From Candidatus Zhuqueibacterota bacterium (GTDB taxonomy: Bacteria; Zhuqueibacterota; Zhuqueibacteria; Residuimicrobiales; Krinioviventaceae), in assembly GCA_016934825.1 (NCBI GenBank), contig JAFGSB010000160.1, forward strand, positions 62,001-126,000: DNA of 64,000 bases, given 5' to 3'. Position numbers and translations under genes: made by a program. Within the stretch, counting starts at the first letter, position 1, and each line of letters starts with the position of its first letter. The notes below the pieces were generated by a model. That model made no database searches, was not told the origin of the DNA, and saw only the letters and a program-made list of their open reading frames with translations. This document shows, piece after piece, positions 23,768-43,933 of the stretch.

Positions 23768-24154
23768 TTCCACTCGTCTTTTCACAATCAAAAATTCAGT
23801 TGATTAATCATTTTCCAAATTAAAATTTTGAAATCAATGTTCGGCAACGCCCGCCCGGATCCATGCCGTAAAGATTATACGGGGCCGGTGTTATCCAAAG
23901 CCCGGCGATTTAAGCGTTTTTATTCATTGAAAACATATAATTTATCATGTGTAAATCAGCAAAGGTTATGCCAATACGGCTCACGAAGGCCCAGCTTAAA
24001 TCGAATAAAAACAATGTATTCGACGATATATAATCAATTGTACGGTTACGGATTTCCAATTATGGAAAAAAAGGCATTAAATATGAACTTTTTTTCCCAC
24101 ATTAAATTTTTAATTTTAATAGAATAAAAAAGGGTTCAAAACAAATAACGAGGT

Positions 24155-24190
24155 AAAAAAAATGGCCCCGCGATTAAATCACGGAGCCAT
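24155..24190 (-). terminator. Intrinsic terminator for the dockerin-bearing giant gene
   Basis: A 14-base imperfect stem (24162-24175 with 24177-24190, only G-T wobbles interrupting it) is followed on the minus strand by eight T residues. It begins 27 bases past the stop codon. The remaining gap up to 23768 is the upstream region of the cohesin-like gene and shows nothing else I can support. Confidence 0.85.
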
Positions 24191-24216
24191 CACCATGAAG
24201 AGAAAGTAGCGGATAA

Positions 24217-28422: not shown

Positions 28423-28447
28423 GTTAACACCTCCATGTGCAAAAAAG

Positions 28448-28476
28448 TATTTATGAATTAGTAAACTTTGCGTCAA
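28448..28476 (-). promoter_or_regulatory. Candidate promoter for the dockerin-bearing giant gene
   Basis: On the minus strand TTGACG (28476-28471), a 17-base spacer and TAAATA (28453-28448) lie just before the GGAGGTG ribosome binding site, implying a very short leader. The rest of the 28423-29054 gap is extremely AT-rich. It holds a second TTGACA (28585-28580) without a good -10 and no convincing gene. Confidence 0.35.
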
Positions 28477-29054
28477 ATCCGTTTGTCGCATTTAAAATTT
28501 CAGGACCGAATCGGATTCCCCTAATTAAAGAAATTTTAAAATTCTCGTCATAAGCCTCTCCTCATGTTTTGGTTTTAAATGTCAAGTTTATATTTTAAAA
28601 ATTTTTATATCAATAACATTATCCTTTATCGACAAAATCGAAAGAAACTTGAATTTTTTTTAATTTTATGACAAACTGCCTTCCTGCAGGTTAATTTTTT
28701 TGTATGATTTTTGTTTGATACTATTTGACAGCATGTTACCGGCAAAGTCTATGCCATGTTGATTTTTTATTATTGTATCATCAGTGACATAGATAGAACA
28801 TCCATATGTAACACATTGAAATCCCCATAATACTACATATAGATAAATCAAACGTTTATACTACTACATTTGGAAATAATAATCGAAAAAGGAGAGAAAA
28901 AACGAATTTAAAAAATTTTGTATTTGTCGTAATTTTTAAACGGTAAAGATACTTTTGGGTAAAATGTGAACTTTTTTTCCCCTGAAAACATTATATATTT
29001 TCTCTTTCAATTTTTTTCTTTTTTTAATTTTACCCCGGAAGTATTAAAATTTAC

Positions 29055-30059
29055 TTATTCATGGAATTTAGAGTATGTATCGACATAGTTTTGAAATAAA
29101 TTATTTAAATCGATGTTGCGGGAATCCCCCCGATGGACAATTAGCCGGTAGCATAAAATGAGCGGTTTTTCTCTGTTCAAAAGTACGGGCGTTCTGCCGG
29201 GGAATACCGGATTCTGCATACTGTCTTTCTGACGTAAAATCCAGCGTTGCGGGAACAACGGATTTTCAGAGTTGCAAAAAATAGTAATACCGGATATTGA
29301 TTTTTCCGAGAAAGAACCTGAAAAATCGAGCCACGGACCGGCACTTACGGATATATTCTCTGGAGTCACGGGACCTTCCCTGCCGGTGAATTGTATATCA
29401 CCGGGTAACCGGAATCTGGCTGAAAACCCGCCGTAACCTTTTTCATCATCCGATCCGCCGATAGATATTTTTTGTTCCAGTGCGTACAGGTTCGTTTGTA
29501 AATCAATGATGCGACAATCTTTATTTTCAGGATAGACGCTCAGATAAAGTATTTCCTTTACCAGCGGCTTTTCATTCCCCAGGGAATCGGTCCACAACGG
29601 TGATTTCCAGAACACTTTAACCTTTAATGTTTTGATTTTCGCTGTGGAGTCAATCAGAGAGGATTCGACTATATCCAGGCGGAAATCTTTTAAACTCCAG
29701 GAATCGCCGATCAATTTGTCATCCGCCAGCACCTGGTGCCAGGCCCAGAATAAACCCCTGTGATGCGGATGATCCTGAGGGAAATCTTCCGTTAATATTT
29801 CACCGTCCAAACCGTACAGTGGGTGAATATAATGGCAACGTGTATATGCTCCATTCAAAGATTTGGGCTTTACTTGATAGAAAAGGATTCTTTTGCCGTT
29901 TTCAAGAAACGTATAACCGTTTTCTTCCTTTTCGACTTTAATGCCTGTAAAGGTATCGCCGTTATATGAATGAATATCTTTAGCGGATGTTGCCCCAAAT
30001 AAAATAAATAGTAACAGATAAAAAATTTTTCGGACAAGAAAATTTGTTTTATATTTCAT
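29055..30059 (-). CDS. Secreted PmoA-like (DUF6807) protein
   Basis: This 334-residue protein has a signal peptide (IFYLLLFILFGATSA) and the core of the PmoA/DUF6807 family. The conserved HPHHRGLFWAWHQV motif (about 95-108), IHPLYGLDGEILTEDFPQD just before it, and GYGGFSARFRLP are visible. These proteins are common in Planctomycetes and FCB bacteria that degrade complex glycans. Despite the PmoA name they are not shown to be methane monooxygenase subunits, and their activity is not established. The fold is thought to resemble galactose-mutarotase/beta-sandwich proteins. The gene is 70 bases downstream of the lytic transglycosylase gene on the same strand. A role in carbohydrate handling is inferred only. 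Confidence 0.8.
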   Translation of the reverse strand: MKYKTNFLVRKIFYLLLFILFGATSAKDIHSYNGDTFTGIKVEKEENGYTFLENGKRILFYQVKPKSLNGAYTRCHYIHPLYGLDGEILTEDFPQDHPHHRGLFWAWHQVLADDKLIGDSWSLKDFRLDIVESSLIDSTAKIKTLKVKVFWKSPLWTDSLGNEKPLVKEILYLSVYPENKDCRIIDLQTNLYALEQKISIGGSDDEKGYGGFSARFRLPGDIQFTGREGPVTPENISVSAGPWLDFSGSFSEKSISGITIFCNSENPLFPQRWILRQKDSMQNPVFPGRTPVLLNREKPLILCYRLIVHRGDSRNIDLNNLFQNYVDTYSKFHE

Positions 30060-30129: not shown

Positions 30130-30831
30130 TCATAAAATCAGTTCCTGGTATTCTTTATATAATCTTTGAATTGCCTGCACAATTTCACCGCCTTCTTTTG
30201 ATAATATCCCGGAGGCTTTATCATTTTTAAGCCATAATGCGCCGCGGCGCTGGCCGTCAGTAAATGCCGCAAGACCGCCTTCCACATCATATAATTCAAT
30301 TAATGCGGATAGAAACCGGGAACCTATTCTGATATTATATATCGGGTTGAATAATACATCCTGCGCCGTACTCCAGTTTATATTTTCCTGCGAAGCGACA
30401 AACATGGCCGTGACGGGCATGATCTGCATCAGGCCCAGCGCGCCGCTGTCCGATGTGTGTTCGGGATCCCATGTTCCGCCTGTTTCGTAGGTTATGGTAG
30501 CGCAGATCAACTCAACATTTAAATTACTGTATTTAATTGCCATATTATAGATTTCTTCAGCAATTTCATACTTTTTATGTCGTGGCATTTTTACATTGTA
30601 TAAATCAATAATCGATATGGCTTTTTTAATGTTATATTGACGAACGCTGTCAATATTTAACGCGGTTCTCATTTCAATTATCAGATTCTGCAATTCGGCA
30701 ATTTTAACCTGGTTTTTTTTATTAAATATATATTTTATACCTGCCGTACAAATTATCAGTAATAAAATTATTAATAACAGTTTTAAAATTAAAGTTACAA
30801 CGGCACTTGAATTTTTTATTTGATTTTCCAT
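30130..30831 (-). CDS. Membrane-anchored lytic transglycosylase (SLT domain)
   Basis: This 233-residue protein has one N-terminal membrane segment (about 12-33), a short helical linker, and a Slt70-like catalytic domain. The catalytic Glu is in ATITYETGG (E116), and the GALGLMQIMPVTA segment plus the NIRIGSRFLSALIE motif complete the family signature. Such enzymes cleave peptidoglycan between MurNAc and GlcNAc to form anhydro-MurNAc, here probably from the inner-membrane side in the periplasm. A plausible AAGG site precedes the start at 30831. The late segment AAFTDGQRRGALWL is slightly unusual in place of the common AYNAG motif. Confidence 0.88.
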   Translation of the reverse strand: MENQIKNSSAVVTLILKLLLIILLLIICTAGIKYIFNKKNQVKIAELQNLIIEMRTALNIDSVRQYNIKKAISIIDLYNVKMPRHKKYEIAEEIYNMAIKYSNLNVELICATITYETGGTWDPEHTSDSGALGLMQIMPVTAMFVASQENINWSTAQDVLFNPIYNIRIGSRFLSALIELYDVEGGLAAFTDGQRRGALWLKNDKASGILSKEGGEIVQAIQRLYKEYQELIL

Positions 30832-31085: not shown

Positions 31086-32195
31086 ATGATCATTTTTATC
31101 GGCGTCCTCTTTTCGGTTGTCTATTTGGTTGTCCCGGTATTGTTAATGTTGGGACTGATTGTACAATCCAATCCTCAAAAAACAGGGATTGAATCAACGC
31201 CGGCTATTACAATTATTGTAATAGCCCGCGATGAAGAAAAAAATATTGCGGATTGTATGAACGCGTTGCTTAATCAGGATTTTCCGAAACAGAAAATCCA
31301 AATATTGATTATCGATGACGATTCCCGCGATAACACATATAATATTGCTTCAAGTATCGCGTCTGAAAATCCATTGGTCAGGGTCATAAAGAATACCCGT
31401 TCCACAAACTGGAAGAGCCGCAAAAAAGAAGCCCTGCACCAGGCCCTGCACCAGGCTGCGGGAGAATTCCTGTTTTTAACGGACGCGGACTGCCGGCCGG
31501 GCAAATCGTGGATTAAGGATACGCTGGCCGAATTCGATAACACCACCGGACTGGTTGCGGGCTTTTCACCGCAGCAATCGACAGGGTCATCCATCTGGAA
31601 CGGGTTCCTGTTTGCGGATAGTTTGTCGGCCGCCTTTGCTTCTGCAGCGACCATCGGATTAAAGCGCGGCGTGACCTGTACTGGACGCAATCTTGCAATC
31701 CGGACTCAGGCAGTCAAAGATATCGGCGGTTACCAATATTTACCCGATTCCGTTTCGGGAGACGACGATTTTATTTTGTTTCAAATCACCCGGCATCCGA
31801 ACTGGAACGTCCGATATTCATTTCATAAAAGCACTCACGTCCCGGCTTTCGGCCCGGAAAATTTCAGCGAATTCCTCAGGCAAAAAAAACGGCATATTTC
31901 CGCCGGCAGATATTTCGATCCCGGACGGCAGGCCGGTTACGGCATCTACCATCTCACAAATTTCGGATTATGGTTTGCCGCACTAATGAGCTTTTGGACA
32001 AATCACTTTTTAATTGTCCCTCTGCTGTTCAAAATTTTAGTGGATTGGATCGGTCTCAGGCTGTTCACAAAAAAATTATCGCTTGGAATGGATATAATTC
32101 ATTTTCTGATCTGGGAATTTTTATTTCCGGTTTATCATATTTTGGCCGCTCCCGGAGCCATGCGGGGCAAAATAAGCTGGAAAGAAGACCGGTAA
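31086..32195 (+). CDS. Membrane-associated family 2 glycosyltransferase (paralogue A)
   Basis: This 369-residue protein opens with a hydrophobic helix and continues with a GT-A catalytic domain. It has IIVIARDEEKNI (nucleotide binding), IIDDDSRDNT, the DXD-type LTDADCRPGKSW (about 129), GDDDFIL and a basic RQKKRHIS acceptor-region motif that lacks the Trp of its paralogues. C-terminal hydrophobic helices end in ISWKEDR. Such proteins transfer sugars from nucleotide or lipid donors to membrane-embedded acceptors. It is the first gene of a dense plus-strand cluster; the methyltransferase gene starts one base after its stop. Donor and acceptor are unknown. Confidence 0.9.
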   Translation: MIIFIGVLFSVVYLVVPVLLMLGLIVQSNPQKTGIESTPAITIIVIARDEEKNIADCMNALLNQDFPKQKIQILIIDDDSRDNTYNIASSIASENPLVRVIKNTRSTNWKSRKKEALHQALHQAAGEFLFLTDADCRPGKSWIKDTLAEFDNTTGLVAGFSPQQSTGSSIWNGFLFADSLSAAFASAATIGLKRGVTCTGRNLAIRTQAVKDIGGYQYLPDSVSGDDDFILFQITRHPNWNVRYSFHKSTHVPAFGPENFSEFLRQKKRHISAGRYFDPGRQAGYGIYHLTNFGLWFAALMSFWTNHFLIVPLLFKILVDWIGLRLFTKKLSLGMDIIHFLIWEFLFPVYHILAAPGAMRGKISWKEDR

Positions 32196-32196
32196 T

Positions 32197-32997
32197 ATGA
32201 TAAAAAATCCCAACAGAGCGTTATGGAACAATTACGATGAAAGCGCCGTTATCCGCGGAAGACTGGTGGCGCAAATTCTGTCTGCGCACCAGAATCTGCG
32301 GTCGGCGCGAATACTGGACATCGGCTGCGGTACGGGCGGTGCGGCCGTCGCGCTGGCCCGGGCCGGGGCGCGCGTTAAAGCCATTGATCCCGATCCGGAT
32401 AAAATACGACAGGCCAGACAGCTCGCACAGGTGTATGATAATATCGAATTCCGCCAGGGAGATATATCAAACGAGACCGGTCCCTGTAACGACGGCATCA
32501 TTCTCAATGACGTACTGGAACATGTGGATGACCCGGACACCACGCTGGGCTTTTGCGGGAACAACCTGAAAAAAGACGGCCTGCTTTACATCGCCACACC
32601 CAATAAATACGCTCCGCTCAATATTTTGTGCGATCCCCATTACAGTTTGCCGTTTGTGGCTTTGCTGTCACGGAAAAAAGTTAAAAGAATTGTCGTCGGA
32701 CTTTTAAAATGGCAAAAGGGACAAAAGCGTGATTTCCCTCAATTGTTATCATTTAGACAAATAGAAAAACTTTTAGAGCAAAATAATTTTGACTGGGACC
32801 TGGTCAATACCACGGCGGCCTCGATGGCTTTCAGGGAACCTGAAATGCTGTGGAGCAGGCAGTCGCATTTATTTCTGATCAAAACAATTAAAATGTTTAA
32901 ACTGGGAAAAATATTTCTTAAATTAATAAATAACAGAAAAGGCTTTTTCAATAAATACATCAATCCATCCTGGTTTATTCTGGCGAAAAGGATATGA
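32197..32997 (+). CDS. Class I SAM-dependent methyltransferase
   Basis: This 266-residue protein has the class I SAM-binding motif ILDIGCGTGG (39-48), an acidic second motif near AIDPDPDK and the UbiE/Coq5-like motif LNDVLEHVDDPDT. It is of the general small-molecule Methyltransf_11/25 type. Its start lies one base after the glycosyltransferase stop, and its own stop overlaps the next start by four bases (ATGA). It is therefore likely translated with its neighbours and probably methylates a sugar or lipid intermediate made by them. The substrate is inferred from context only. Confidence 0.88.
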   Translation: MIKNPNRALWNNYDESAVIRGRLVAQILSAHQNLRSARILDIGCGTGGAAVALARAGARVKAIDPDPDKIRQARQLAQVYDNIEFRQGDISNETGPCNDGIILNDVLEHVDDPDTTLGFCGNNLKKDGLLYIATPNKYAPLNILCDPHYSLPFVALLSRKKVKRIVVGLLKWQKGQKRDFPQLLSFRQIEKLLEQNNFDWDLVNTTAASMAFREPEMLWSRQSHLFLIKTIKMFKLGKIFLKLINNRKGFFNKYINPSWFILAKRI

Positions 32998-33971
32998 ACG
33001 GAAAATTGCTGAAAATTAAATCCGCGGCGCTGAATCATAAAAAATCGTTGTTATTTGGCATAAAGATATTCATTGCGATTATCATATTGTATTTATTGAT
33101 ACACAGGATCAGTATTGAACAGATTTTACAGGCGTTTCGTCTGGCGCAAATAAAATTTATTGTTTTTTCATTTTTATTATTATTTGTCAATGTGTTCCTT
33201 CAATTTAAAAAATGGAAGCTGCTTGTGGGTCTTGTCAAGCCGGATGTTCGAAATTATGAAATCCTGTCCTCCTTATTGGCCGGATTGACTTTGGGGTTGA
33301 TAACCCCGGGCCGGGTCGGCGAGTTTGGCCGGGCGTTGTTTATTAAAGAATGTAAATGGACATCCCTGGTGGGTCTTGTGATGGTTGATAAAATATTTGC
33401 GCTGGTTGTTATTTACCTGTTCGGCCTGTTTGGGTTTTTTTATTTTATGCAGTTAAAATTTAATCTTCTGATATGGCTGCCGCTCAAGATCATTCTTTTT
33501 CTGGTTTTGATTGTTTTCCTGTTTTTTATTTTGCATCCGCAAAAGTCAAAAATGATGTTGATCCGGTTTTTCCCCTTTTTGCAAAAGAAAAATAAAATAA
33601 ATCAGGTGATTTCCTCTCTGGATGGATTTCATAAAAAGGATGCACGTAAACTTTTATCGCTGGCCCTGCTGCATGTTATGGTGTATGTTTTTCAATTTTA
33701 CCTGTTGATCCGCGCTTTTACAACCATTCAATTATACCGGGGACTGCTGGCTATCGGTTCGACCATTATGGCCAAAACCCTGCTTCCGATATCCTTTGGC
33801 GATCTGGGTATCCGGGAAAGTGCGGCCGTTTTTTTCTTTGGTCAGTTCAATGTGTCCCAGGCCGCCGCCTTTAACGCTTCATTTTTGCTTTTTTTGATCA
33901 ATGTTTTTATACCCGGTCTGGCGGGGCTGGTATTGCTGATGGTAAACCGGCTTTATGATAATAATAAATAG
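32994..33971 (+). CDS. LPG synthase/AglD-type flippase-like membrane protein (UPF0104)
   Basis: This 325-residue integral membrane protein has about seven or eight hydrophobic helices and the conserved UPF0104 pattern: FKKWKLLVG, GLITPGRVGEFGRAL, MVDKIFALVV and LLPISFGDLGIRESA. This domain (lysylphosphatidylglycerol synthase transmembrane region) occurs without the MprF synthase domain beside many glycosyltransferases and is often proposed to move lipid-linked intermediates across the membrane. A ribosome binding site AAAAGGAT lies directly before the overlapping ATG. In this cluster it is the best candidate for the translocation step; that role is inferred. Confidence 0.85.
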   Translation: MNGKLLKIKSAALNHKKSLLFGIKIFIAIIILYLLIHRISIEQILQAFRLAQIKFIVFSFLLLFVNVFLQFKKWKLLVGLVKPDVRNYEILSSLLAGLTLGLITPGRVGEFGRALFIKECKWTSLVGLVMVDKIFALVVIYLFGLFGFFYFMQLKFNLLIWLPLKIILFLVLIVFLFFILHPQKSKMMLIRFFPFLQKKNKINQVISSLDGFHKKDARKLLSLALLHVMVYVFQFYLLIRAFTTIQLYRGLLAIGSTIMAKTLLPISFGDLGIRESAAVFFFGQFNVSQAAAFNASFLLFLINVFIPGLAGLVLLMVNRLYDNNK

Positions 33972-33980
33972 AATTTGTTT

Positions 33981-35117
33981 ATGACTGTTCTGTTCGTTTT
34001 TTATATATTGTCTACGGTTGTATATGGTTTTTTTATTGTATCCCTCGTTTTCGGATTAAACCGTCTTAAAACTCAAAAGTCAGGTCTTCAGCATACTTTT
34101 GTTTCCGTAATTATACCCGCCCGTAATGAGGAGAAAAATATTTCCAAATGCCTGAAAGCGCTTATCGGGCAATCTTACCCGAAAGAGTTGTTTGAAATAC
34201 TCATTGTCGATGACTTTTCAACTGATCTTACCGGACAAATCGTGCGGGAGTTTGCGGCGCAGCACAATAACATCAGGCTCATTTCACTCACTGAAACCAA
34301 CACCGGCGTATCACCCAAAAAACGAGCCATTGAAGCCGGTATTCAGCAGAGCAGGGGAGAGATCATATTCACGACCGATGCGGATAGTCTGGCGCCCCCG
34401 GGCTGGCTTGAAACTGTGCTGCGTTATTTTGATGAAGATACCGGACTGGTTGCTTCGTGGCTGCAGGTGAATCCCGGGAAAAAACTGTTGGGCAAGCTGG
34501 AATCTCTGGATTCTCTGAGCATGGTGATAACCGGCGCAGCGGCCTTTGGGCTTGGATTCCCCGTTCTGGCAAACGGCGCGAACCTTGCATACCGGAAATC
34601 CCTGTTTCAGGATATGAACGGGTTTCAGGGAAGCGAACAACTCGCGTCGGGCGATGACGATTTATTGCTGCAAAAGATTTTCAAACAGTCAAAATGGAAG
34701 GCGGTGTTTGCGCCGGATTTATCAGCAAGCGTATCGACCGAAGCAAACTTTTCGTTGCAGGATTTTTTCTCGCAACGCGTCCGCTGGGCATCCAAAAGCG
34801 GAACGTATCCCCTGTCTGTTTTGGCTTTTGAAATTTTTTTATATTGTTATTTTTTATTTATATTCCTGTCAATCCCGCTTTTATTTGTTTCATTCGTTTA
34901 CCTGATTTTTCCCGCCGTAAAACTCCTGCTGGATTATGTAGTCATGAAACGCGGCTGTGATAAATTGAACAGGAATTTATCTCCGGTTTATTTTTTGCCG
35001 GCGATTTTTTTTCAAATGGGTTACATATTAATTGCCGGTATCGCGGGATTGACCGGAAAATTTACGTGGAAAAACCGGTTGTACCTGAAAGGGAAACCGG
35101 TCTCCTCAAAAAATTAA
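33981..35117 (+). CDS. Membrane-associated family 2 glycosyltransferase (paralogue B)
   Basis: This protein of about 378 residues has an N-terminal hydrophobic helix, then VSVIIPARNEEKNISKC, ILIVDDFSTDLTG, the DXD motif TTDADSLAPPGW (Ser replaces the Cys of the other copies), SGDDDLLL and QRVRWASKSG. Two or three C-terminal membrane helices follow, and the tail is FTWKNRLYL. I use the ATG at 33981 rather than the TTG at 33975. The layout is that of carotenoid- or lipid-directed GT2 enzymes such as chlorobactene glucosyltransferase, but no pigment genes are nearby. It ends the first sub-block of the cluster; a palindromic MITE-like element follows. Confidence 0.9.
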   Translation: MTVLFVFYILSTVVYGFFIVSLVFGLNRLKTQKSGLQHTFVSVIIPARNEEKNISKCLKALIGQSYPKELFEILIVDDFSTDLTGQIVREFAAQHNNIRLISLTETNTGVSPKKRAIEAGIQQSRGEIIFTTDADSLAPPGWLETVLRYFDEDTGLVASWLQVNPGKKLLGKLESLDSLSMVITGAAAFGLGFPVLANGANLAYRKSLFQDMNGFQGSEQLASGDDDLLLQKIFKQSKWKAVFAPDLSASVSTEANFSLQDFFSQRVRWASKSGTYPLSVLAFEIFLYCYFLFIFLSIPLLFVSFVYLIFPAVKLLLDYVVMKRGCDKLNRNLSPVYFLPAIFFQMGYILIAGIAGLTGKFTWKNRLYLKGKPVSSKN

Positions 35118-35194
35118 GTCATATATACATTATTCTACAAGATTTAAAAGATTATTTTTGGTTTGAAAAATAATCTTTAATCATTATATTTTTG

Positions 35195-35304
35195 CACTGA
35201 TATCCGGTTACCGGACAACTCTGTCTGATCCGGTTAAAAGTTTTATAAAAATAATTAATAAATATGTAAAGAGTATCGTGTCCGGGTTTAACCGGACTCT
35301 GATG
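35195..35304. repeat. MITE-like palindromic element, copy 1
   Basis: The 110-base element has two GC-richer ends that are inverted versions of each other around TCCGGTTA/TAACCGGA, with an AT-rich middle. The left 39 bases share 31 positions with 51624-51662. The right part (AATAAATATGT onwards, containing GTCCGGGTTTAACCGGAC) matches 51757-51805. It lies about 45 bases before the start of the Wzi-like gene. Confidence 0.7.
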
Positions 35305-35350
35305 AAATTTTTTGCCAATATTAATAAGGAAATTAAAAGGCGGATCCGTT

Positions 35351-36919
35351 TTGAAAAAGTTCTTGTATGCCTGTCTGTTGTATATTTTTACCGCGACCGT
35401 TGTACAGGGTCAGTCCGTAAATCTTCCTCTGGATCACTGGGGATACCGTTTCCTGGAACGCTGCGAGGCAAAAGGGCTGATCAAATCATTTGATCTTGCT
35501 GTCAAACCGGTTTCCAGGGAAGTATTGGCTGAACTCCTCGTGAACATGGAAACCCGTCTGCAAAAGCAACCGGATCTCTTTTCGGAAACGGATTGGGCGT
35601 TGTTCAATCAGTTAAAAGGGGATTTTACCGATGAACTTTTGAATAAAGAGATTTCTTTAAAAAATATTAAAAGTGAAAGACATCTCACCCGGTTTACGGA
35701 GAACACCAGTCACGTTTATTTTGATTTGCAGGGAAGAGAATCGATCATATCCAACCGCGGCGATTTATACGATCCCGATGAACTGCTGTCCGAGACCACA
35801 TTGGGAGGAATGTTACGCGGACAGCTTGGCGGCTCAATCGGTTTTTATGCGGACGCGCGGAATTCTCTGCTCAGGGGCAGCGATGTTGAGGGAGAAAGTT
35901 TTGATGTGTCCAAAGGATCGCCGGTCGTTATGTCCGGATCAAATGTTTACCGCGACCGCGCGACGGCTTATTTTATACTGGAAAAGCCATGGCTGCGGTT
36001 CGAGATCGGCCGGGATGAATTCGAGTGGGGTCCCGGCTCGCACGGCGGATTAAGCATTAACCGGAATATGCCGCCCTCCGATATGATCCGGCTGAGCACC
36101 TGTTTCAGTCGTTTTCGGTTCACCAGCGTTCATCTGTTCCTCAGCAGCAGCCTGGGACCGAAATATCTGGCCGGACACCGCCTTGATTTTAAACTTTTGC
36201 CGGGCTTTTACCTGGGGGCGACGGAAACCGTTGTTTACGGCAACCGGGATGTGGAACCGGCTTATATTAATCCGCTGATGTTTTATCATGTTGCCGAACA
36301 TCATCTTGGCGATAAAGACAATAATACCATGAGTCTCGACATGACCTTAACGCTGTTACCGCATACAAGACTTTACGGTGAATTTTTTATCGATGATATG
36401 ACATCCACCAAAAGTCTGACGGGATATTTCGGCAACAAGTTCGCGTTCCTCGCCGGCGGACTGTGGACGGATGTTTTCAGCATAAGCAATCTCGATATCA
36501 GCGCCGAATACGCGCGTATCGAGCCCTTTGTTTACGCGCATAAGGATTCGATCAATATTTATACCCATTATGATAAAATTATCGGCCACTGGCTGGGACC
36601 CAATTCCGATTCCGCGTATTTAAAAGCGGGGTATCAATTCAACCGGGATGTCCGGCTGGAGCTGTCTTTCGAACGCCTCCGTTCCGGTTCCGGAGAGGCC
36701 AATACGGTCGACCGTCCCGAAAACGGTACGGAGAAAAAATTCCTGGACGGGTTTGTCGAATCAAAAAAACTGTATGGTTTTCAATTGATCGACCAGCTTT
36801 ATCGTGATATATTCGTTTCCCTTTCTTATACCTATTCGAACGGGGAAAATCTTTTTTTGCAGCCGAATAAAAATTCGAACGATCATCTTGCACGATTCGA
36901 AGTTTATTTTAATTATTAA
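35351..36919 (+). CDS. Wzi-like capsule assembly outer-membrane beta-barrel protein
   Basis: This protein of about 522 residues is predicted to begin at a TTG (35351) behind AAAAGGCGGA, which yields a clean signal peptide (KKFLYACLLYIFTATVVQGQ). The N-terminal region (DHWGYRFLERCEAKGLI) resembles the helical plug part of Wzi-like proteins. The rest is amphipathic beta-strand-rich, with EIGRDEFEWGPGSHGGLSI, AYINPLMFYHVAEHH and a C-terminal strand ending ARFEVYFNY, as expected for an outer-membrane barrel. E. coli Wzi binds capsule at the cell surface. Its place among five glycosyltransferases suggests that the cluster product is displayed or anchored at the outer membrane. Confidence 0.8.
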   Translation: MKKFLYACLLYIFTATVVQGQSVNLPLDHWGYRFLERCEAKGLIKSFDLAVKPVSREVLAELLVNMETRLQKQPDLFSETDWALFNQLKGDFTDELLNKEISLKNIKSERHLTRFTENTSHVYFDLQGRESIISNRGDLYDPDELLSETTLGGMLRGQLGGSIGFYADARNSLLRGSDVEGESFDVSKGSPVVMSGSNVYRDRATAYFILEKPWLRFEIGRDEFEWGPGSHGGLSINRNMPPSDMIRLSTCFSRFRFTSVHLFLSSSLGPKYLAGHRLDFKLLPGFYLGATETVVYGNRDVEPAYINPLMFYHVAEHHLGDKDNNTMSLDMTLTLLPHTRLYGEFFIDDMTSTKSLTGYFGNKFAFLAGGLWTDVFSISNLDISAEYARIEPFVYAHKDSINIYTHYDKIIGHWLGPNSDSAYLKAGYQFNRDVRLELSFERLRSGSGEANTVDRPENGTEKKFLDGFVESKKLYGFQLIDQLYRDIFVSLSYTYSNGENLFLQPNKNSNDHLARFEVYFNY

Positions 36920-36933
36920 TCCAGGACATTGTT

Positions 36934-38049
36934 TTGACAGATATTTTAATTACTTTTTTATTTGCTCTGACCTCTGTTTATGTCCTGCTTATTTTATGGA
37001 TAATTGCCGGAATAAACAGACTGTTCCCGAAAAAGAATTCCGACCAACCTTTTGTTTCCATTGTTGTCGCGGCAAGAAACGAAGAAAAGAACATAGGGGA
37101 CTTGATGACCGCCCTGGTCCGGCAGGATTATCCGAACGAAAAATATGAAATAATTATTGTAGACGACGGGTCCACCGATAATACGGCGGAGATCGTTAAA
37201 AAATACCAGTCCGGCAGTTCTTGTCGAATTCATCTGTTAACAACGACCAATCGGGCGCAGGTGATATCCCCGAAAAAGAACGCGGTTACCATGGGAGTAA
37301 ATCATGCGGCAGGCGAAATTATATTTCTAACGGACGCGGATTGTGTTCCGCCTCCCGGCTGGGTATCGGGTACGGTTCAATATTTTTCGTCCGAAACCGG
37401 GATGGTTATCGGATTCTCGCCCAATGAACTGCCGTCGTTAAATTCGATAACGGCCAAACTTCTGGCGCTGGACTCTTTGTCTCTGGCGGCGGTCGCGGCC
37501 GGCACTACGGGATGGTGCGTTCCGGCCACCTGTAACGGCCGTAACCTGGCCTATCGAAAAATTGTTTTTAAGCAGGTGGGAGGTTTTGAAAAAATCAAAC
37601 AGTATGCCTCCGGCGATGACGACCTTTTCCTGAAGCTGGTTTTAACCGGCACAAAGTGGAAAATTCAATACGCGCTTGAGGAACAGCTTGCCGTACCGAC
37701 AAAGAAACTTACAAATTTCAGGCAGTTTTTTAATCAAAGACTGCGGCACGCATCCAAAGGATTCCATTACGAGCCGATAAAAATTATTATTCTTTTTTTT
37801 GTTTATATTTTTAATTTTATATTATTATTTAATCTCTTTTATTTAATAAATTATTTTTCATATATTCCGCTGGTCTGCTTTGCCATGAAATCGCTGGCGG
37901 AATTGTTGATCCTGTATATTTTCGCGGTCCGCATTAAGAGACGGCATTACTTAAGCATTTTTCCGCTGGCATCCGTTCTGCATTTGTTTTATGTGGTTTT
38001 TTTCGGCGCCCTCGGTCAGTTGAAAAAATTTAAATGGAAAGACAATTAA
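36934..38049 (+). CDS. Membrane-associated family 2 glycosyltransferase (paralogue C)
   Basis: This 371-residue protein uses a TTG start at 36934, 14 bases after the Wzi-like stop, with AGGA upstream. It shows VSIVVAARNEEKNIGDL, IIIVDDGSTDNTAEIV, FLTDADCVPPPGW, SGDDDLFLKL and QRLRHASKG. Hydrophobic helices precede a C-terminal FKWKDN. It is clearly paralogous to the neighbouring GT2 proteins along its whole length. It probably adds one residue of the same product; specificity is unknown. Confidence 0.9.
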   Translation: MTDILITFLFALTSVYVLLILWIIAGINRLFPKKNSDQPFVSIVVAARNEEKNIGDLMTALVRQDYPNEKYEIIIVDDGSTDNTAEIVKKYQSGSSCRIHLLTTTNRAQVISPKKNAVTMGVNHAAGEIIFLTDADCVPPPGWVSGTVQYFSSETGMVIGFSPNELPSLNSITAKLLALDSLSLAAVAAGTTGWCVPATCNGRNLAYRKIVFKQVGGFEKIKQYASGDDDLFLKLVLTGTKWKIQYALEEQLAVPTKKLTNFRQFFNQRLRHASKGFHYEPIKIIILFFVYIFNFILLFNLFYLINYFSYIPLVCFAMKSLAELLILYIFAVRIKRRHYLSIFPLASVLHLFYVVFFGALGQLKKFKWKDN

Positions 38050-38067
38050 TATTTAAGGTCTGTCCTG

Positions 38068-39237
38068 GTGTTAACATTTGTTTTAATTTTTCTTTCTTTC
38101 ATTTACGTATTCACAGTAATAGTTTTTTTCATCGGCCTGTTTTTCAAAAGATCCGGGTCAAATACCGTACAGTACCGGGTTACTGTGGTCATTGCGGCGC
38201 GAAACGAAGAAAAGAACATCTCCAACATCCTCGACGATCTGGTTCACCAGACATATCCCAAAACCCTGTATGAGGTCATCATAGTTAATGACAGCTCGAC
38301 CGACAACACACAGCAGATTATCGACTCGTATGCAAAGAAATATTCATTTTTTCGGTCCTACCTGATCGAGAAGGTTCCCGCGGGATTCAGTCCGAAAAAG
38401 TACGCGTTACAATGCGCAGTCAATCAAACCGGCGGCGATATTTTACTTGGCACGGACGCCGATTGCCGCGTTTCCTCCCGGTGGATCGAATCCATGGTAT
38501 CTTTTTTCGAGCCGAATGTTGGATTTGTCATCGGCTTTTCACAATTCGGCCGAAAAAAAAGCAAACAAAATTTTATCGAGCGGCTGCAGGCATTCGATTT
38601 TATGCAAATGATGGGTGTGGCAGCAGGCACATGCAATATGAGATTACCCATGGCGGCTTCGGGGCAAAACCTGGGTTACCGGCGAAAAGTTTTTGAACAG
38701 ATCGGCGGTTTTTCAAAAATCGCGCACCGTGTGTCCGGCGATGATGTACTGCTGATGCAGCTGGTAAAAAAGCACACAAAATATAAGATCGTTTACGCGT
38801 CCACTTCGTCCAGCTTTGTCACATCCAAACCGCAGCCGGACCTGGCGTCGTTTATTAATCAAAGAATTCGCTGGGCCTCTAACGGCTCTTATCAAATTTA
38901 TCTTAATATTCCGTTTTTTGCTTACCTGCTGCAGTTCTATCTTTATTCATTCTTTTTGTTTTTCGGTCTGTTGTTCGCGCTGTCCTGCGGACATTATATA
39001 TCCTTATTCCTTACGGGTTTGCTTTTGAAATTTATTGCCGATTTTATTATTACGGCAAAAAGCGCCTCTTATTTTAATCGTATGGATCTGTTGAAATATT
39101 TCCCGGTGTGGTTTTTGTTGCAACTGCCCTATGTTCTCTATGTGGGATTATTGGGGACTTTTGGTAATTTTAAATGGAAAGAACGCAGTCACTCCCCTGT
39201 TTTTAATAAAAATCCAAAAAAATATGACAACGATTAG
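38068..39237 (+). CDS. Membrane-associated family 2 glycosyltransferase (paralogue D)
   Basis: This 389-residue protein starts at a GTG (38068) with TAAGG upstream, 18 bases after paralogue C. It has VTVVIAARNEEKNISNI, VIIVNDSSTDNTQQII (Asn replaces the first Asp of the usual DD pair), LGTDADCRVSSRW, SGDDVLLMQL and QRIRWASNG. C-terminal membrane helices follow and a tail GNFKWKERSHS. Its end overlaps the start of the DUF3108 gene by 14 bases. Confidence 0.9.
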   Translation: MLTFVLIFLSFIYVFTVIVFFIGLFFKRSGSNTVQYRVTVVIAARNEEKNISNILDDLVHQTYPKTLYEVIIVNDSSTDNTQQIIDSYAKKYSFFRSYLIEKVPAGFSPKKYALQCAVNQTGGDILLGTDADCRVSSRWIESMVSFFEPNVGFVIGFSQFGRKKSKQNFIERLQAFDFMQMMGVAAGTCNMRLPMAASGQNLGYRRKVFEQIGGFSKIAHRVSGDDVLLMQLVKKHTKYKIVYASTSSSFVTSKPQPDLASFINQRIRWASNGSYQIYLNIPFFAYLLQFYLYSFFLFFGLLFALSCGHYISLFLTGLLLKFIADFIITAKSASYFNRMDLLKYFPVWFLLQLPYVLYVGLLGTFGNFKWKERSHSPVFNKNPKKYDND

Positions 39238-40045
39238 TCACAACAATTTGTCCGGAATATTTTCTATCCGGTTTTTTATCGTTATGCTGTATTGTTTTTT
39301 TTCTTTTATAATTCCGGTTCAATCCGATGAACAGGATAAAGGCAACACATGTTATTTTTGTAACGGGGAAACATTAAAATACAATATGAAATTTAATGGA
39401 ATGTCCACAGCGCAATCTATACTATATGCCGAATCGGAGGATCCGCCGTTTCTTGAAATCAACTGGGATTTGCATTCAAAAACTGTCTATAAACTTTTAT
39501 TTTATGTCGACAATCATTATTATGCAAAAGTCGATATGAACATCTGGCTGCCGGTAAAACTGGCCAAAAAAGTAAAACAGAAAAATATCAAACAATCCTT
39601 CGAAACCGTTTATGACCGTAAAAGATTGATTGCCCAAACGGATAACGGCTTGCAGTGGCCCATAAAAAACAACTGTATGGATTTGTTTTCCATGTTGTAC
39701 CATCTCAGGACCAGGGAACTGGCGCCGGGCGACAGCCTGATTTATATATTGGACATCGAGAGCCATGTCTGGAAACTGACGGGAAAAGTCAGGGAAGGCG
39801 AAAAAGTAAAAGGTCCTTTTCAGGATTTGAACATCCGGCAAGTCGATTTTTCTTTTACGCCGGAACTGCCGGTAAAAGACCGGACATGGAAAACGGACCT
39901 GTTCACGAACCGTATTTCACAACCGGACACAAAATTAACTGTTTGTTTGGGGCCGCCGCCGGAAAAATTGCCGGTTTTTTTAAAATTTGAGACAAAAAAG
40001 ACATCCGTAGAGATGCTGCTTGATGAATATTCCTTAAAAAAGTGA
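39224..40045 (+). CDS. DUF3108 domain-containing exported protein
   Basis: This 273-residue protein has an N-terminal hydrophobic export segment (IRFFIVMLYCFFSFIIPVQS) and a DUF3108 domain, a beta-rich fold related to periplasmic lipoprotein-carrier proteins. Recognisable segments are NGETLKYNMKFNGMSTAQS, TVYKLLFYVDNHYYAKVDM and LQWPIKNNCMDLFSMLYHLR. I place the start at 39224 because the export signal begins there and the longer frame lies inside paralogue D. It overlaps paralogue D and is eight bases from paralogue E. A role in handling or transporting the product in the periplasm is inferred from the neighbourhood. Confidence 0.75.
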   Translation: MTTISHNNLSGIFSIRFFIVMLYCFFSFIIPVQSDEQDKGNTCYFCNGETLKYNMKFNGMSTAQSILYAESEDPPFLEINWDLHSKTVYKLLFYVDNHYYAKVDMNIWLPVKLAKKVKQKNIKQSFETVYDRKRLIAQTDNGLQWPIKNNCMDLFSMLYHLRTRELAPGDSLIYILDIESHVWKLTGKVREGEKVKGPFQDLNIRQVDFSFTPELPVKDRTWKTDLFTNRISQPDTKLTVCLGPPPEKLPVFLKFETKKTSVEMLLDEYSLKK

Positions 40046-40052
40046 CGTTGCC

Positions 40053-41186
40053 ATGCCGGATTTTACAATTGTATTATTTTTTATTTACGCCATGTATTTA
40101 TTATTGGGGCTTTTAATCCTTTTCGGATTGAAAAATCCGGGGCAAACCGAATACAGTGGTCAACCATTCGTTTCGGTAATTATCGCGGCGCGAAACGAGG
40201 AAGAAAATCTGCCGAATTGTTTAACATCTTTAATTGCACTGGATTACCCCAGTGACAAACTGGAAATTATTGTCGTGGACGACCATTCTTCCGATTCAAC
40301 GGCGCGGATTATCTCCAGGTTCGCTGAAACATATCCGTTTATAAAACCATATCCGTTAGAGGCCGGACAAAATTCTACCCCGGGGAAAGCCGGGGCCCTC
40401 AATTATGGTATTCGTAAAAGTAAAGGCGAATTCATTTTTGTCACGGACGCCGATTGCCGTGTACCGTCAACATGGGTCAAAAGCCTGTTATCTTTATTTT
40501 CGGATTCTGTCGGCGTTGTCGGCGGAGTAACCCTGCTGGATAAACGTCACGATTCATCACCGCTTTTCGGCAAAATTCAATCCTGTGACTGGTTATTTTT
40601 GCTCAGCGTCGCCGCGTCCGCCAACAATTATGGATTGCCGCTAAGCTGGTTCGGCAATAATATGGCATTCCGGCGTAAAACCTACAATGATGTCGGCGGC
40701 TTTGAAAAGATCAGCAACAACCTGGTTGAAGATATTGCCCTGCTGTTGGAAATACATAAATCCTCCCAATGGGGGATAAAATTTTCTTTTTCCCCTCATT
40801 CGTTATTACACAGTATACCCGCACCGAATCTGAAAGAATACTATAACCAGCGAAAAAGATGGGCAAGCGGCATCCGGATTGTTCATTCATTCGGGATCCT
40901 CCTGTTAACCGTTTCCGTGCTGGCACATATCCTGACAGTTTTGGTTTTGTTATGGTCGCACAGTATTACCGCACTGGCCGGTATTATATTGCTGTCTGTA
41001 ACCGATTTTGCTGTACTGAACCGGGCATCCCGGCTGCTGGGGCGTACGGATCTTTTACGTTATGTTTTTATTTTTGAAATATATTATTTTATTTATACAA
41101 TATTACTGCCGATATTTCTTTTGTTTGACAAAAAAACAAGCTGGAAGGACCGGCAATATTCTTTGAAAAAAAATAAAATCGTTTAA
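40053..41186 (+). CDS. Membrane-associated family 2 glycosyltransferase (paralogue E)
   Basis: This 377-residue protein has VSVIIAARNEEENLPNC, IIVVDDHSSDSTARII, VTDADCRVPSTW and QRKRWASG. Where its paralogues have GDDD it has LVEDIALLLEI, the ED motif seen in many processive or lipid-directed GT2 enzymes. C-terminal helices end in TSWKDRQYSL. It is the most divergent of the five copies. A gap of 42 bases separates it from the radical SAM gene. Confidence 0.9.
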   Translation: MPDFTIVLFFIYAMYLLLGLLILFGLKNPGQTEYSGQPFVSVIIAARNEEENLPNCLTSLIALDYPSDKLEIIVVDDHSSDSTARIISRFAETYPFIKPYPLEAGQNSTPGKAGALNYGIRKSKGEFIFVTDADCRVPSTWVKSLLSLFSDSVGVVGGVTLLDKRHDSSPLFGKIQSCDWLFLLSVAASANNYGLPLSWFGNNMAFRRKTYNDVGGFEKISNNLVEDIALLLEIHKSSQWGIKFSFSPHSLLHSIPAPNLKEYYNQRKRWASGIRIVHSFGILLLTVSVLAHILTVLVLLWSHSITALAGIILLSVTDFAVLNRASRLLGRTDLLRYVFIFEIYYFIYTILLPIFLLFDKKTSWKDRQYSLKKNKIV

Positions 41187-41228
41187 TTTAAAATTAAGAT
41201 CCTCATAAAACAAACCAGATCGCGCATT

Positions 41229-42284
41229 ATGACTCTACTACGGCCCTTACTGCTGCATTATTTTATTACTTTCCGCTGTAATTGCAGGTGCTCATTTTGC
41301 GATATCTGGAATGCCGATCGATATGATCAGACAATTTTTGCCGATATAAAGGACGTTGAACAAAACCTTATAGAGGCAAAAAAGCTGGGCGTCAAATTTG
41401 TCGATTTTACCGGCGGCGAACCGCTTTTGCATCCGCACATCCGCACATTTCTTAAATTGGCCAGGAAACTGGGTTACCGGACATCCGTTACCACAAACTG
41501 TTTATTATACCCGCAAATTGCCGAATCCATAAAAGGACAGGTTGATTTTTTGCATTTTTCTCTGGATTCGTTGATCGAATCACAGCATGATGAAATCAGG
41601 AATAAAAAAGCATTCGTCTCTGTATTGACAAGTATTGATACCGCACGCGCACTGGGCGAAAAGCCAGACCTGTTATTCACGGTGACGGATATTAACGTTA
41701 AACAAACAGGCCCGTTATCTGAATTAGCGAAACGGCTCGGACTTTTATTGCTTGTCAATCCTGTTTTTACCAACAGCAGGGGGCTGGAAATCTCTTTGCA
41801 AAATTTAAAATTTCTTGAGAGATTTCAGTACAAACCCTATGTATATATCAACAAGGCGTTTCACCGGCTGCGGGGAAACGGGGGCAATTCCATCCAAAAA
41901 CCGAGGTGCCGGGCGGTTGATTCCACCCTCGTAATTTCGCCGGACAACCATCTGCTGCTGCCCTGTTTCCATTTTTGTCAAATAAAAAAGGCGATTAATG
42001 GAGACTTGTCGGGAATTTATAACAGCGAAAAGTTGAGGGAATATAAAAACAGGCAGGGTCGTTTTGATTTTTGCGAGAGATGTATGTTAAATTGTTATTT
42101 CGATCCCTCATTTGTTTACAAATGCGACGTTTATTTTTTGGAAAGCCTCTTTGCGAAAGCGCGTTATGTTTATTATAAGCATATCAGAAGAATGGCGGAT
42201 AGTCTGTTCGGCAGGCTTGAAAACAGGCCGGCGCTGCAGATTGTTAAAGAAATCAACAGCAAATATTTCCCGGAAAACAGTTAA
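41229..42284 (+). CDS. Radical SAM protein with extra C-terminal cysteines
   Basis: This 351-residue protein carries the radical SAM cluster motif C-x3-C-x2-C (C17, C21, C24) and the GGEPLL motif. It has additional cysteines at KPRCRAV, LPCFHFCQ and FCERCMLNC, which suggests a SPASM/Twitch-like auxiliary iron-sulfur site. Such enzymes carry out radical modification of lipids, peptides or sugars. The stop codon overlaps the start of the PHP gene (TAATG), so the two are tightly coupled. The N-terminal LLRPLLLHYFITFRCN resembles lipid- and cell-envelope-associated radical SAM proteins, but the substrate is unknown. Confidence 0.85.
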   Translation: MTLLRPLLLHYFITFRCNCRCSFCDIWNADRYDQTIFADIKDVEQNLIEAKKLGVKFVDFTGGEPLLHPHIRTFLKLARKLGYRTSVTTNCLLYPQIAESIKGQVDFLHFSLDSLIESQHDEIRNKKAFVSVLTSIDTARALGEKPDLLFTVTDINVKQTGPLSELAKRLGLLLLVNPVFTNSRGLEISLQNLKFLERFQYKPYVYINKAFHRLRGNGGNSIQKPRCRAVDSTLVISPDNHLLLPCFHFCQIKKAINGDLSGIYNSEKLREYKNRQGRFDFCERCMLNCYFDPSFVYKCDVYFLESLFAKARYVYYKHIRRMADSLFGRLENRPALQIVKEINSKYFPENS

Positions 42285-43933
42285 TGACAATAGATCTGCC
42301 CGAAAATTATTTATGGCTTGCCCCGGTCTTTTTCTTTCTTTACGCGGAAATCCATTTCCGTATACCCGGATTATACAGCCGTTATTATAAAAAAGAACCG
42401 GAAATAATCGCCGATGTTCCTTTTCGGCTTGATCCTGGTCAGCCTTTGCCTGTATTGATCCTGATCAAAGACGCCCACATGTTCCCGGTCAGGTTATTAC
42501 ACATATCCGCGGATATTTCCCGGAACGGTCAAAAGTATGAGCTGTTGAATGAACAGCCGGGAAAACTTTTGGTTGAAAAGCCCCTCTGGTCGAAATTGTA
42601 TTTTATCCGTTTACCGGAAGAGATTGACGGGCGGGTTCGTATGGACGTTGCCATAACTTTTGAGATAAACGGAAAAGTGAAAACAATCCATAACGACAAT
42701 TACGCGTTGACCTCGCATTCGCCGTTTGAAATTTTGATCGACCAGTATCCCCTTCCCAAAAAAGAAAAGTGGTACCTTGGCGATCTGCATTATCACAGCA
42801 TTTACTCCAGCGACCAGGTAGAATTCGGCGCTCCGCTTGATGTTTCAAAACAGATCGCCAAAGCAATGGGAATAGATTTTTTTGCCGTTACCGACCACTC
42901 TTATGATCTGGACGATCTCCCGGATAATTACCTGCAAAACGATCCGTTATTATCCAAATGGATTGACATGCTGGATTCCACAGCCGCACTTAACAAGGAA
43001 GACAAATCATTTATCATCATCCCGGGAGAAGAAATGTCCGTAGGCAATGAGAAAAAACAAAATGTACATTTTCTGCTGCTGAACAACCGGGATTTTTTCC
43101 ACGGCAGCGGCGACGGTGCCGAAAAATGGTTTCGCACCAAACCGGAATGGCTCATCCGGCAAATTTTGCCGAAACTGGAACCGACCGCCCTGGCCGTCGC
43201 GGCCCATCCGGAAACGAAACCGCCGCTGCTGCAAAAACTGCTTATTAACAGGGGGAAATGGAGGAACAAGGATTATATGGCGGAAGGATTGCATGGCGTG
43301 CAGATGTGGAATGGTATAAAAAGCCACTTTTTACAACACGGAATTCAAAAATGGGTCTCTTTGCTTCTAAAGGGGAAAAAGTTGTCACTTTTAGCGGGAA
43401 ATGACGCACACGGAAATTTTAACCGGTTCCGGCAGCTCGGCACACCGTTTTTAACTATGCGGGAAAATAAAAATGACGTATTCACAACCGTCAGAACGGG
43501 CGTTTATATTGAAAAAGAATTTTCACTAAACAGTCTCATCGAAGCCATCAGAAAGGGAGGAACGATTGTAACGGACGGGCCCTTTGCGGAAATATCCATA
43601 AAAAATAATAATGGTAAAATTTGTAAAATGGGGGATACCTTTACCGACAACGCAGGAACTCTGCAGGTAACGGTGCTTTCGTCACCGACTTTTGGTTTTA
43701 TAAAATCGGTTGAGCTGTATGCCGGCGATGTTGACCGTGGAGAGGAAACAATTGTTTTTTGTTTAACACCCGAAACCGGCTGCTATGAATATTTTAATGA
43801 ACAGGAAATAAACAGACTCCCCGGAAATGGATATATACGATTAATGGCCATAAGTGAAAATCAGGAAAATACATACCACTGTTTTACCAATCCTGTTTAT
43901 ATAAAGCAGGATGAAGATTTTTACATGACCTGA
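42284..43933 (+). CDS. PHP-domain (CehA/McbA-like) metal-dependent hydrolase
   Basis: This 549-residue protein has an N-terminal beta-rich region (1-150) and a PHP domain from about 160. Metal-ligand motifs are WYLGDLHYHSIYSSD, FFAVTDHSYD, IPGEEMSV, LAVAAHPETKPP and LLAGNDAHGNFNRFR. A C-terminal beta-rich region follows GGTIVTDGPFAEI. PHP enzymes hydrolyse phosphoesters; CehA/McbA relatives hydrolyse carbamate or aryl esters. No signal peptide is certain, although residues 8-20 are hydrophobic. Coupled translation with the radical SAM gene ties it to the same pathway, possibly phosphate removal from an intermediate; this is inferred. Confidence 0.82.
   Translation: MTIDLPENYLWLAPVFFFLYAEIHFRIPGLYSRYYKKEPEIIADVPFRLDPGQPLPVLILIKDAHMFPVRLLHISADISRNGQKYELLNEQPGKLLVEKPLWSKLYFIRLPEEIDGRVRMDVAITFEINGKVKTIHNDNYALTSHSPFEILIDQYPLPKKEKWYLGDLHYHSIYSSDQVEFGAPLDVSKQIAKAMGIDFFAVTDHSYDLDDLPDNYLQNDPLLSKWIDMLDSTAALNKEDKSFIIIPGEEMSVGNEKKQNVHFLLLNNRDFFHGSGDGAEKWFRTKPEWLIRQILPKLEPTALAVAAHPETKPPLLQKLLINRGKWRNKDYMAEGLHGVQMWNGIKSHFLQHGIQKWVSLLLKGKKLSLLAGNDAHGNFNRFRQLGTPFLTMRENKNDVFTTVRTGVYIEKEFSLNSLIEAIRKGGTIVTDGPFAEISIKNNNGKICKMGDTFTDNAGTLQVTVLSSPTFGFIKSVELYAGDVDRGEETIVFCLTPETGCYEYFNEQEINRLPGNGYIRLMAISENQENTYHCFTNPVYIKQDEDFYMT

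What the first reader, a model, noticed from the sequence alone, without database searches (positions are those of the whole stretch)
31086..43933. Candidate undescribed glycolipid/surface-glycan assembly cluster
Twelve closely packed plus-strand genes combine five paralogous membrane-associated GT2 enzymes, a SAM methyltransferase, an AglD/LPG-synthase-type membrane protein, a Wzi-like outer-membrane barrel, a DUF3108 exported protein, a radical SAM enzyme and a PHP-domain hydrolase. Spacings are one to a few tens of bases or overlaps (ATGA at 32994, TAATG at 42282, 14 bases at 39224). It lacks the usual Wzx, Wzy, Wzz, ABC exporter or nucleotide-sugar genes, so it does not match a standard O-antigen or capsule locus. 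The set suggests stepwise glycosylation and modification of a membrane lipid, flipping by the UPF0104 protein and outer-membrane display; the pathway is inferred.
Basis: partly seen in the sequence, partly recalled or inferred. Interest (0 to 1): 0.78.

Follow-up and report, generated by a model that had tools for sequence, protein, structure and literature searches.

The report
Conserved glycolipid-assembly gene cluster in KSB1
Eleven neighbouring genes in an uncultured KSB1 bacterium look like an assembly line that adds several sugars to a membrane lipid, flips it across the inner membrane and probably shows it on the cell surface; the line is kept in many related phyla, but no one has shown what it makes.

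Summary
In detail: eleven (not twelve) plus-strand genes at 31086-43933, tightly packed except for a ~230-base gap at 35118-35350. Five encode membrane-associated GT2 enzymes, and no Wzx, Wzy, Wza or ABC exporter gene was seen in the 64 kb. The five GT2s are five old orthologous lines, not recent duplicates, and three of them (a, b, e) recur by position in Ignavibacteria. The block is three modules that join and part: GT2a-MT-(rSAM)-UPF0104-GT2b; Wzi-GT2c-GT2d; DUF3108-GT2e-rSAM-PHP. In Ignavibacteria the compact form is GT2-UPF0104-GT2-CE4 deacetylase-GT2-PHP, which resembles the characterised glycolipid operons gpgSDF and hexSDF. One KSB1 family whose genomes lack LpxC and LpxB still keeps the core, so lipid A is unlikely to be the obligatory acceptor. 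DUF3108 models as an EipB/LolA-like barrel, and the PHP protein as a phosphoesterase-type domain between two Ig-like domains. Best reading: stepwise building of a glycolipid or lipid-linked glycan, flipped by UPF0104, with periplasmic and outer-membrane parts. Lipid, sugars and end product are unknown. New variant of a known kind, moderately interesting.

The parts
31086..32195 (+). GT2a: membrane-associated family 2 glycosyltransferase
   Evidence: Pfam PF00535 E 9.8e-23; DxD 'TDADC', 'GDDD'; clade that includes the first GT2 of the Ignavibacteria operon (98/99)
32197..32997 (+). MT: class I SAM-dependent methyltransferase
   Evidence: PF13489 E 3.7e-19
32994..33971 (+). UPF0104 / LPG_synthase_TM protein, MprF-flippase-like, without a lysyl-transferase domain
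   Evidence: PF03706 93 bits, TIGR00374 just over cut-off; ortholog in 8 of 9 other genomes of the family, 35-59% identity, with GT2b next to it in all 7 loci examined
33975..35117 (+). GT2b: membrane-associated GT2, partner of UPF0104
   Evidence: PF00535 E 1.2e-28; orthologous clade with the second GT2 of the Ignavibacteria operon, 95/95
35118..35350 (.). largest intergenic gap; module boundary, possible internal promoter
   Evidence: sequence; promoter-like match at 35163, of a kind also found in shuffled sequence; module 1 is separated here in sister genera
35351..36919 (+). Wzi-like outer-membrane protein
   Evidence: PF14052 79.8 bits, cut-off 30.1; homologs in 77 of 82 phylum genomes; GT2c directly follows it in 16 of 18 loci fetched for it
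36934..38049 (+). GT2c
   Evidence: PF00535 E 9.4e-27; own clade in the order, 100/99
38068..39237 (+). GT2d
   Evidence: PF00535 E 6.9e-23; own clade 100/100
39224..40045 (+). DUF3108 exported protein, LolA/EipB-like barrel
   Evidence: PF11306 30 bits; model pLDDT 87; best match DUF1849 6NTR, Z 17.0 over 211 residues
40053..41186 (+). GT2e, conserved in nearly all forms of the operon
   Evidence: PF00535 E 8.2e-27; nearest solved relative 6YV7, a family 2 GT, E 2.9e-17, and ceramide glucosyltransferase E 3e-7; clade 100/100 over all lineages sampled
41229..42284 (+). radical SAM enzyme with a C-terminal cysteine cluster
   Evidence: PF04055 E 1.8e-18; CxxxCxxC at residue 17 and Cys 282/285/289/299
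42284..43933 (+). PHP-domain metallohydrolase between two Ig-like domains
   Evidence: NF038032 CehA/McbA 91 bits over cut-off 80; metal-ligand residues invariant in 43 sequences; model pLDDT 91; best match 2ANU, Z 17.6 over 199 residues

Best explanation
A glycolipid (or lipid-linked oligosaccharide) assembly operon. On the cytoplasmic face of the inner membrane the GT2 enzymes add sugars one after another to a membrane lipid, each of the five probably making a different linkage; the methyltransferase and the radical SAM enzyme decorate the product. The UPF0104 protein, usually next to GT2b, moves the lipid to the outer leaflet. DUF3108, an exported barrel of the LolA/EipB kind, and the Wzi-like outer-membrane barrel then carry or hold the glycan at the cell surface. 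The PHP enzyme, probably a phosphoesterase or similar hydrolase, trims or releases an intermediate. Shown: the genes, their families, the conserved linkage, orthology and module structure. Inferred by analogy: order of sugar transfer, flipping, periplasmic transfer, surface display, PHP role.
For: GT2s with one N-terminal and several C-terminal hydrophobic segments and intact DxD and GDD/ED motifs; closest solved relatives of GT2e include membrane GT2s such as 6YV7 and ceramide glucosyltransferase. Five separate orthologous clades kept in position, as expected if each has its own step. UPF0104 next to GT2b in all seven sister-genus loci and in most Ignavibacteria loci. The Ignavibacteria form adds a CE4 deacetylase, matching the synthase-deacetylase-flippase logic of gpgSDF, which makes GlcN-phosphatidylglycerol (PMC12713373), and hexSDF, which makes an aminohexosyl-hexosyl-diradylglycerol (PMC10128005). 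Wzi followed by GT2c in 16 of 18 loci. DUF3108 fold. Core kept where LpxC and LpxB are missing.
Against: Family membership of the GT2s does not fix the acceptor; PgaC-type polymer synthases also give long profile matches to GT2e, though far below their cut-off (103 against 422 bits). UPF0104 flippase activity has not been shown directly even in the Gpg and Hex systems. PHP occurs without any GT2 in many genomes, so its tie to the pathway is weak. Wzi and DUF3108 are absent from the compact form. No deacetylase in the window's cluster.
Confidence: 0.6

Rival explanations
1. Exopolysaccharide or capsule locus: one or more GT2s are synthase-type polymerases that make and extrude a polysaccharide, and the Wzi-like protein anchors it at the surface, as Wzi does for group 1 capsule.
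For: GT2e and GT2d give their best NCBIfam match to PgaC/IcaA (103 and 87 bits); QxxRW motif in GT2b, d and e; Wzi-GT2c-GT2d triad kept even apart from the rest.
Against: All scores far below the PgaC cut-off of 422; five distinct GT2 lines and a UPF0104 partner suggest stepwise transfer; ceramide glucosyltransferase-like GTs also carry (Q/R)xxRW (general knowledge); no Wza, Wzc, BcsB-type or Pga partner in the cluster.
Confidence: 0.2
2. Protein glycosylation: a polyprenyl-phosphate-linked glycan is built by the GT2s, flipped by UPF0104 (as the C-terminal domain of AglD may do) and transferred to secreted proteins such as the T9SS-type cargo of this phylum.
For: UPF0104 is the C-terminal domain of AglD and is predicted to flip lipid-linked sugars (PMC5898192); nearest solved relative of GT2e is 6YV7, which I recall as an archaeal mannosyltransferase; a sorted surface protein lies nearby.
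Against: No oligosaccharyltransferase (PglB, PglL or PMT type) among the genes of the cluster; Wzi and LolA-like DUF3108 are not part of such systems as far as I know.
Confidence: 0.12
3. LPS core or O-antigen modification: the sugars end up on lipid A.
For: The genome has LpxC and LpxB; a published KSB1 analysis finds the lipid A pathway in all but one clade (PMC9012183).
Against: Family f7 lacks LpxC and LpxB in 8 of 8 genomes but keeps GT2a-(MT)-rSAM-UPF0104-GT2-GT2e-PHP in the four loci with enough contig; no LPS genes near the block.
Confidence: 0.08

Closest known systems
gpgSDF of Pseudomonas aeruginosa (GlcN-phosphatidylglycerol synthesis; PMC12713373)
   Same: Glycosyltransferase on a membrane lipid and a UPF0104 predicted flippase in the same operon; Ignavibacteria relatives also have a polysaccharide deacetylase-family enzyme
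   Different: One GT4 enzyme instead of three to five GT2s; no Wzi, DUF3108, radical SAM or PHP; the window has no deacetylase
hexSDF of Clostridioides difficile (aminohexosyl-hexosyl-diradylglycerol; PMC10128005)
   Same: Synthase, polysaccharide deacetylase, MprF-like flippase; some Ignavibacteria loci carry a GT28-like enzyme in place of, or beside, GT2e, like HexS
   Different: Single sugar step, monoderm host, no outer-membrane parts
Hopanoid hpn cluster (HpnB, HpnI, HpnH, HpnL)
   Same: Combination of GT2 with radical SAM and, from memory, a UPF0104-type HpnL; HpnB/HpnI are among the best NCBIfam matches of the GT2s
   Different: No convincing squalene-hopene cyclase in the genome (one 20-bit, 85-residue match); HpnB/HpnI scores far below cut-off
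Group 1 and group 4 capsule outer-membrane parts (Wzi; GfcB/YmcC, GfcD)
   Same: Wzi family membership; the DUF3108 model resembles the YmcC-like 3FZX (Z 10.5)
   Different: No Wza/GfcE, Wzc/Etk, GfcC or GfcD/DUF940 in the cluster

Membership tests
Synthase-deacetylase-flippase glycolipid operon (Gpg/Hex type) | UPF0104 flippase-domain protein without aminoacyl-transferase domain, in operon with glycosyltransferase | tested here: met
   32994-33971 is 325 aa, PF03706 only; adjacent to GT2b, 3 bases apart
Synthase-deacetylase-flippase glycolipid operon (Gpg/Hex type) | N-acetyl-sugar deacetylase in the operon | tested here: not met
   None in 31086-43933; present as CE4 (PF01522) in the related operons L109, L123, L112
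Synthase-deacetylase-flippase glycolipid operon (Gpg/Hex type) | glycosyltransferase acts on a glycerolipid | not testable with these tools
   needs lipidomics
Wzx/Wzy- or ABC-dependent O-antigen/capsule locus | Wzx, Wzy, or ABC exporter plus nucleotide-sugar genes in the locus | tested here: not met
   All 11 genes assigned to other families; flanks to both window ends are housekeeping or T9SS-type genes as read from ORF lists; Wza genes on other contigs
Hopanoid biosynthesis (hpn) | squalene-hopene cyclase in genome | tested here: not met
   one 20-bit partial match of 85 residues in a 311-aa frame
Wzi capsule-assembly family PF14052 | score above curated cut-off | tested here: met
   79.8 against 30.1 bits
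CehA/McbA PHP metallohydrolases (NF038032) | score above curated cut-off and intact metal ligands | tested here: met
   91.2 against 80 bits; H169, H171, H205, E249, H262, H308, D374, H376 invariant in 43 sequences
LolA/LolB/EipB-type periplasmic barrels | fold of the DUF3108 protein | tested here: met
   DUF1849 6NTR Z 17.0, rmsd 3.5, 211 residues; LolA 8T5J Z 10.9; 3FZX Z 10.5. Shared fold only, no function shown
Poly-GlcNAc synthase PgaC/IcaA | NCBIfam equivalog cut-off | tested here: not met
   best 102.7 bits (GT2e) against 422.3

The most novel reading that the evidence does not exclude
A non-LPS outer-membrane glycolipid pathway, spread over the FCB bacteria, with its own synthesis (several GT2s), inner-membrane flippase (UPF0104), periplasmic carrier (DUF3108, LolA/EipB-like) and outer-membrane receiver (Wzi-like); in the KSB1 family without LpxC and LpxB its product could be the main surface glycolipid in place of LPS.
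Probability: 0.15. Interest if true: 0.8.

Novelty: new variant of a known kind. Interest (0 to 1): 0.5.

Why it matters
Few glycolipid pathways outside LPS are known in diderm bacteria, and none, to my knowledge, with both a flippase-type protein and outer-membrane parts in one operon. The compact form occurs in Ignavibacteria, a group with cultured members (from memory, Ignavibacterium album and Melioribacter roseus, not checked here for the operon), so the product could be sought by lipidomics. The lineage without LpxC and LpxB makes 'what replaces LPS' a concrete question.

Tried and rejected
Hopanoid decoration: rejected for lack of a squalene-hopene cyclase. Rearranged O-antigen locus with Wzx/Wzy just outside: none within 31 kb upstream or 20 kb downstream in the window. 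Recent tandem duplication of the GT2s: rejected by the tree. PHP as a strict pathway marker: rejected, it occurs without a labelled GT2 in 18 of 50 loci with 7 kb upstream. LptD as a test of LPS loss: inconclusive, family matches too weak throughout the phylum. PDB search by sequence with DUF3108 and Wzi gave nothing useful. Plain Foldseek with the whole PHP model was filled by beta-sandwich proteins with TM about 0.2 or less; the VIA look gave the PHP matches. Literature searches for UPF0104 with GT and radical SAM, and for Ignavibacteria glycolipids, found no description.
Full report
What is there. The window lies on contig C34 of a 5.39 Mb, 95% complete genome whose named relatives are candidate division KSB1 MAGs. 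Eleven plus-strand genes fill 31086-43933: GT2a, a methyltransferase, a UPF0104/LPG_synthase_TM protein, GT2b, a Wzi-like protein, GT2c, GT2d, DUF3108, GT2e, a radical SAM enzyme and a PHP protein. Spacing is close to zero except for about 230 bases before the Wzi-like gene. The five GT2s share 26-38% identity among themselves, while the next GT2 matches in the genome have E-values of 1e-15 or worse.

Is it more than chance? Yes. The PHP protein was used as an anchor: it is present in 60 of 82 genomes of the phylum. Around it the same genes recur in the same order and strand in several families of the order and class: for example GT2a-MT-UPF0104-GT2b-Wzi-GT2c-GT2d-DUF3108-GT2e-rSAM-PHP in G034 (L022), and the same with two extra radical SAM genes in G051 (L036). 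Counting loci fetched later, Wzi directly follows UPF0104-GT2b in ten other genomes of the order: G034, G044, G045, G046, G047, G049, G050, G051, G053, G054. The downstream neighbours R3H-Mpl-RodZ-Maf-DTD are shared by many loci, and a divergent lytic-transglycosylase gene upstream of GT2a by several.

Modules. In sister genera the block is split. GT2a-MT-UPF0104-GT2b lies alone in G037 and G039, and UPF0104-GT2b alone in five others. The Wzi-like gene, with homologs in 77 of 82 genomes, is followed directly by GT2c in 16 of 18 loci fetched for it, often with GT2d next. The third module is DUF3108-GT2e-rSAM-PHP. The 230-base gap is the border between the first and second modules. Repeated joining of the three modules argues for a shared pathway; their separation argues that each can work from elsewhere in the genome.

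Orthology. A maximum-likelihood tree of 85 GT2s places GT2d (100/100) and GT2e (100/100) in own clades, groups GT2b of KSB1 with the second GT2 of Ignavibacteria (95/95), and GT2a with the first GT2 of Ignavibacteria (98/99); GT2c of the order forms its own clade (100/99). The paralogs are therefore old and probably kept for different tasks. In Ignavibacteria and some Bacteroidota the compact operon is GT2a-UPF0104-GT2b-CE4 deacetylase-GT2e-PHP, in some with a GT28-like enzyme beside or in place of GT2e. Its upstream neighbours differ from those in KSB1.

How it probably works. UPF0104 proteins share the flippase domain of MprF and have been predicted to flip lipids or lipid-linked sugars (PMC5898192). 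Two small operons with this protein are characterised: gpgSDF makes glucosaminyl-phosphatidylglycerol (PMC12713373) and hexSDF makes aminohexosyl-hexosyl-diradylglycerol (PMC10128005); in both the flippase step itself is unproven. The Ignavibacteria operon has the same logic with more sugar steps. The KSB1 form lacks the deacetylase and adds a methyltransferase, radical SAM enzymes, DUF3108 and a Wzi-like protein. The GT2s have one hydrophobic segment at the N terminus and several at the C terminus, with intact catalytic motifs; GT2e is nearest among solved structures to 6YV7, and matches ceramide glucosyltransferase over 270 residues. I therefore favour stepwise synthesis of a glycolipid or lipid-linked oligosaccharide; a polymer synthase is the main rival.

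Envelope parts. The DUF3108 model (pLDDT 87) matches DUF1849 6NTR (Z 17.0, 211 residues), then LolA, YmcC-like and other lipid-carrier barrels at Z about 10. That 6NTR is EipB of Brucella is from memory. A shared fold does not show function, but it fits a protein that handles a lipid in the periplasm. The PHP model (pLDDT 91) has a PHP domain between two Ig-like domains and matches phosphoesterases (2ANU Z 17.6; 3E38 Z 16.9), with the metal ligands invariant in 43 sequences. PHP is also found without any of the glycosyltransferases; its role is the least certain.

LPS. LpxC is found in 70 of 82 genomes but in none of the eight of family f7; LpxB is likewise not over the cut-off in any of the eight, while Omp85 proteins are present in all eight. 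The published KSB1 survey also reports one clade without the lipid A genes (PMC9012183); whether it is the same clade was not checked. Family f7 keeps a core of GT2a, radical SAM, UPF0104, a second GT2, GT2e and PHP, with the methyltransferase labelled in two of the four loci that have enough contig. So the core does not depend on lipid A. The f7 core lacks Wzi and DUF3108 at this locus, so its product may differ.

Verdict. Real, conserved and, as far as the held literature shows, undescribed; it works like known glycolipid operons but is not a member of the Gpg/Hex type as it stands (no deacetylase), nor of Wzx/Wzy or ABC loci, nor of the hopanoid cluster. New variant of a known kind. The chemistry is open.

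Noticed in passing
genomes G023-G030 (KSB1 family f7): All eight genomes lack LpxC, and none has LpxB over the cut-off, although six are at least 94% complete and all carry Omp85 proteins: a probable LPS-free diderm lineage within the phylum.
   Followed up: partly
window 42284-43933 and relatives L086, L101, L126, L130, L135: The PHP/CehA-like protein is widespread in FCB phyla and often stands alone; in L126 (Ignavibacteriae) the flanks of the operon remain but the GT2, UPF0104 and deacetylase genes are gone while PHP stays. Its function is unknown.
   Followed up: partly
window 30130-30831: A divergent lytic-transglycosylase (SLT) gene next to GT2a is also next to GT2a in G034, G044, G045, G047, G050 and G054.
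   Followed up: no
G000:C148, about 40-75 kb: Three UPF0104 genes, several GT2s and one Wza-type gene lie together: probably the conventional polysaccharide region of this genome.
   Followed up: no
L103:5914-7014, L036:1986-3146, L036:9209-10297, L112:6310-7215: Different radical SAM (some SPASM) genes sit at recurrent places of the operon in different lineages, next to UPF0104 or between GT2d and DUF3108.
   Followed up: partly
window 29055-30059: DUF6807 protein next to the cluster on the minus strand, not seen in the neighbouring loci labelled.
   Followed up: no
window 17876-28491: Large surface proteins on the minus strand; the one at 24217-28491 has a T9SS-type C-terminal sorting domain.
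   Followed up: no
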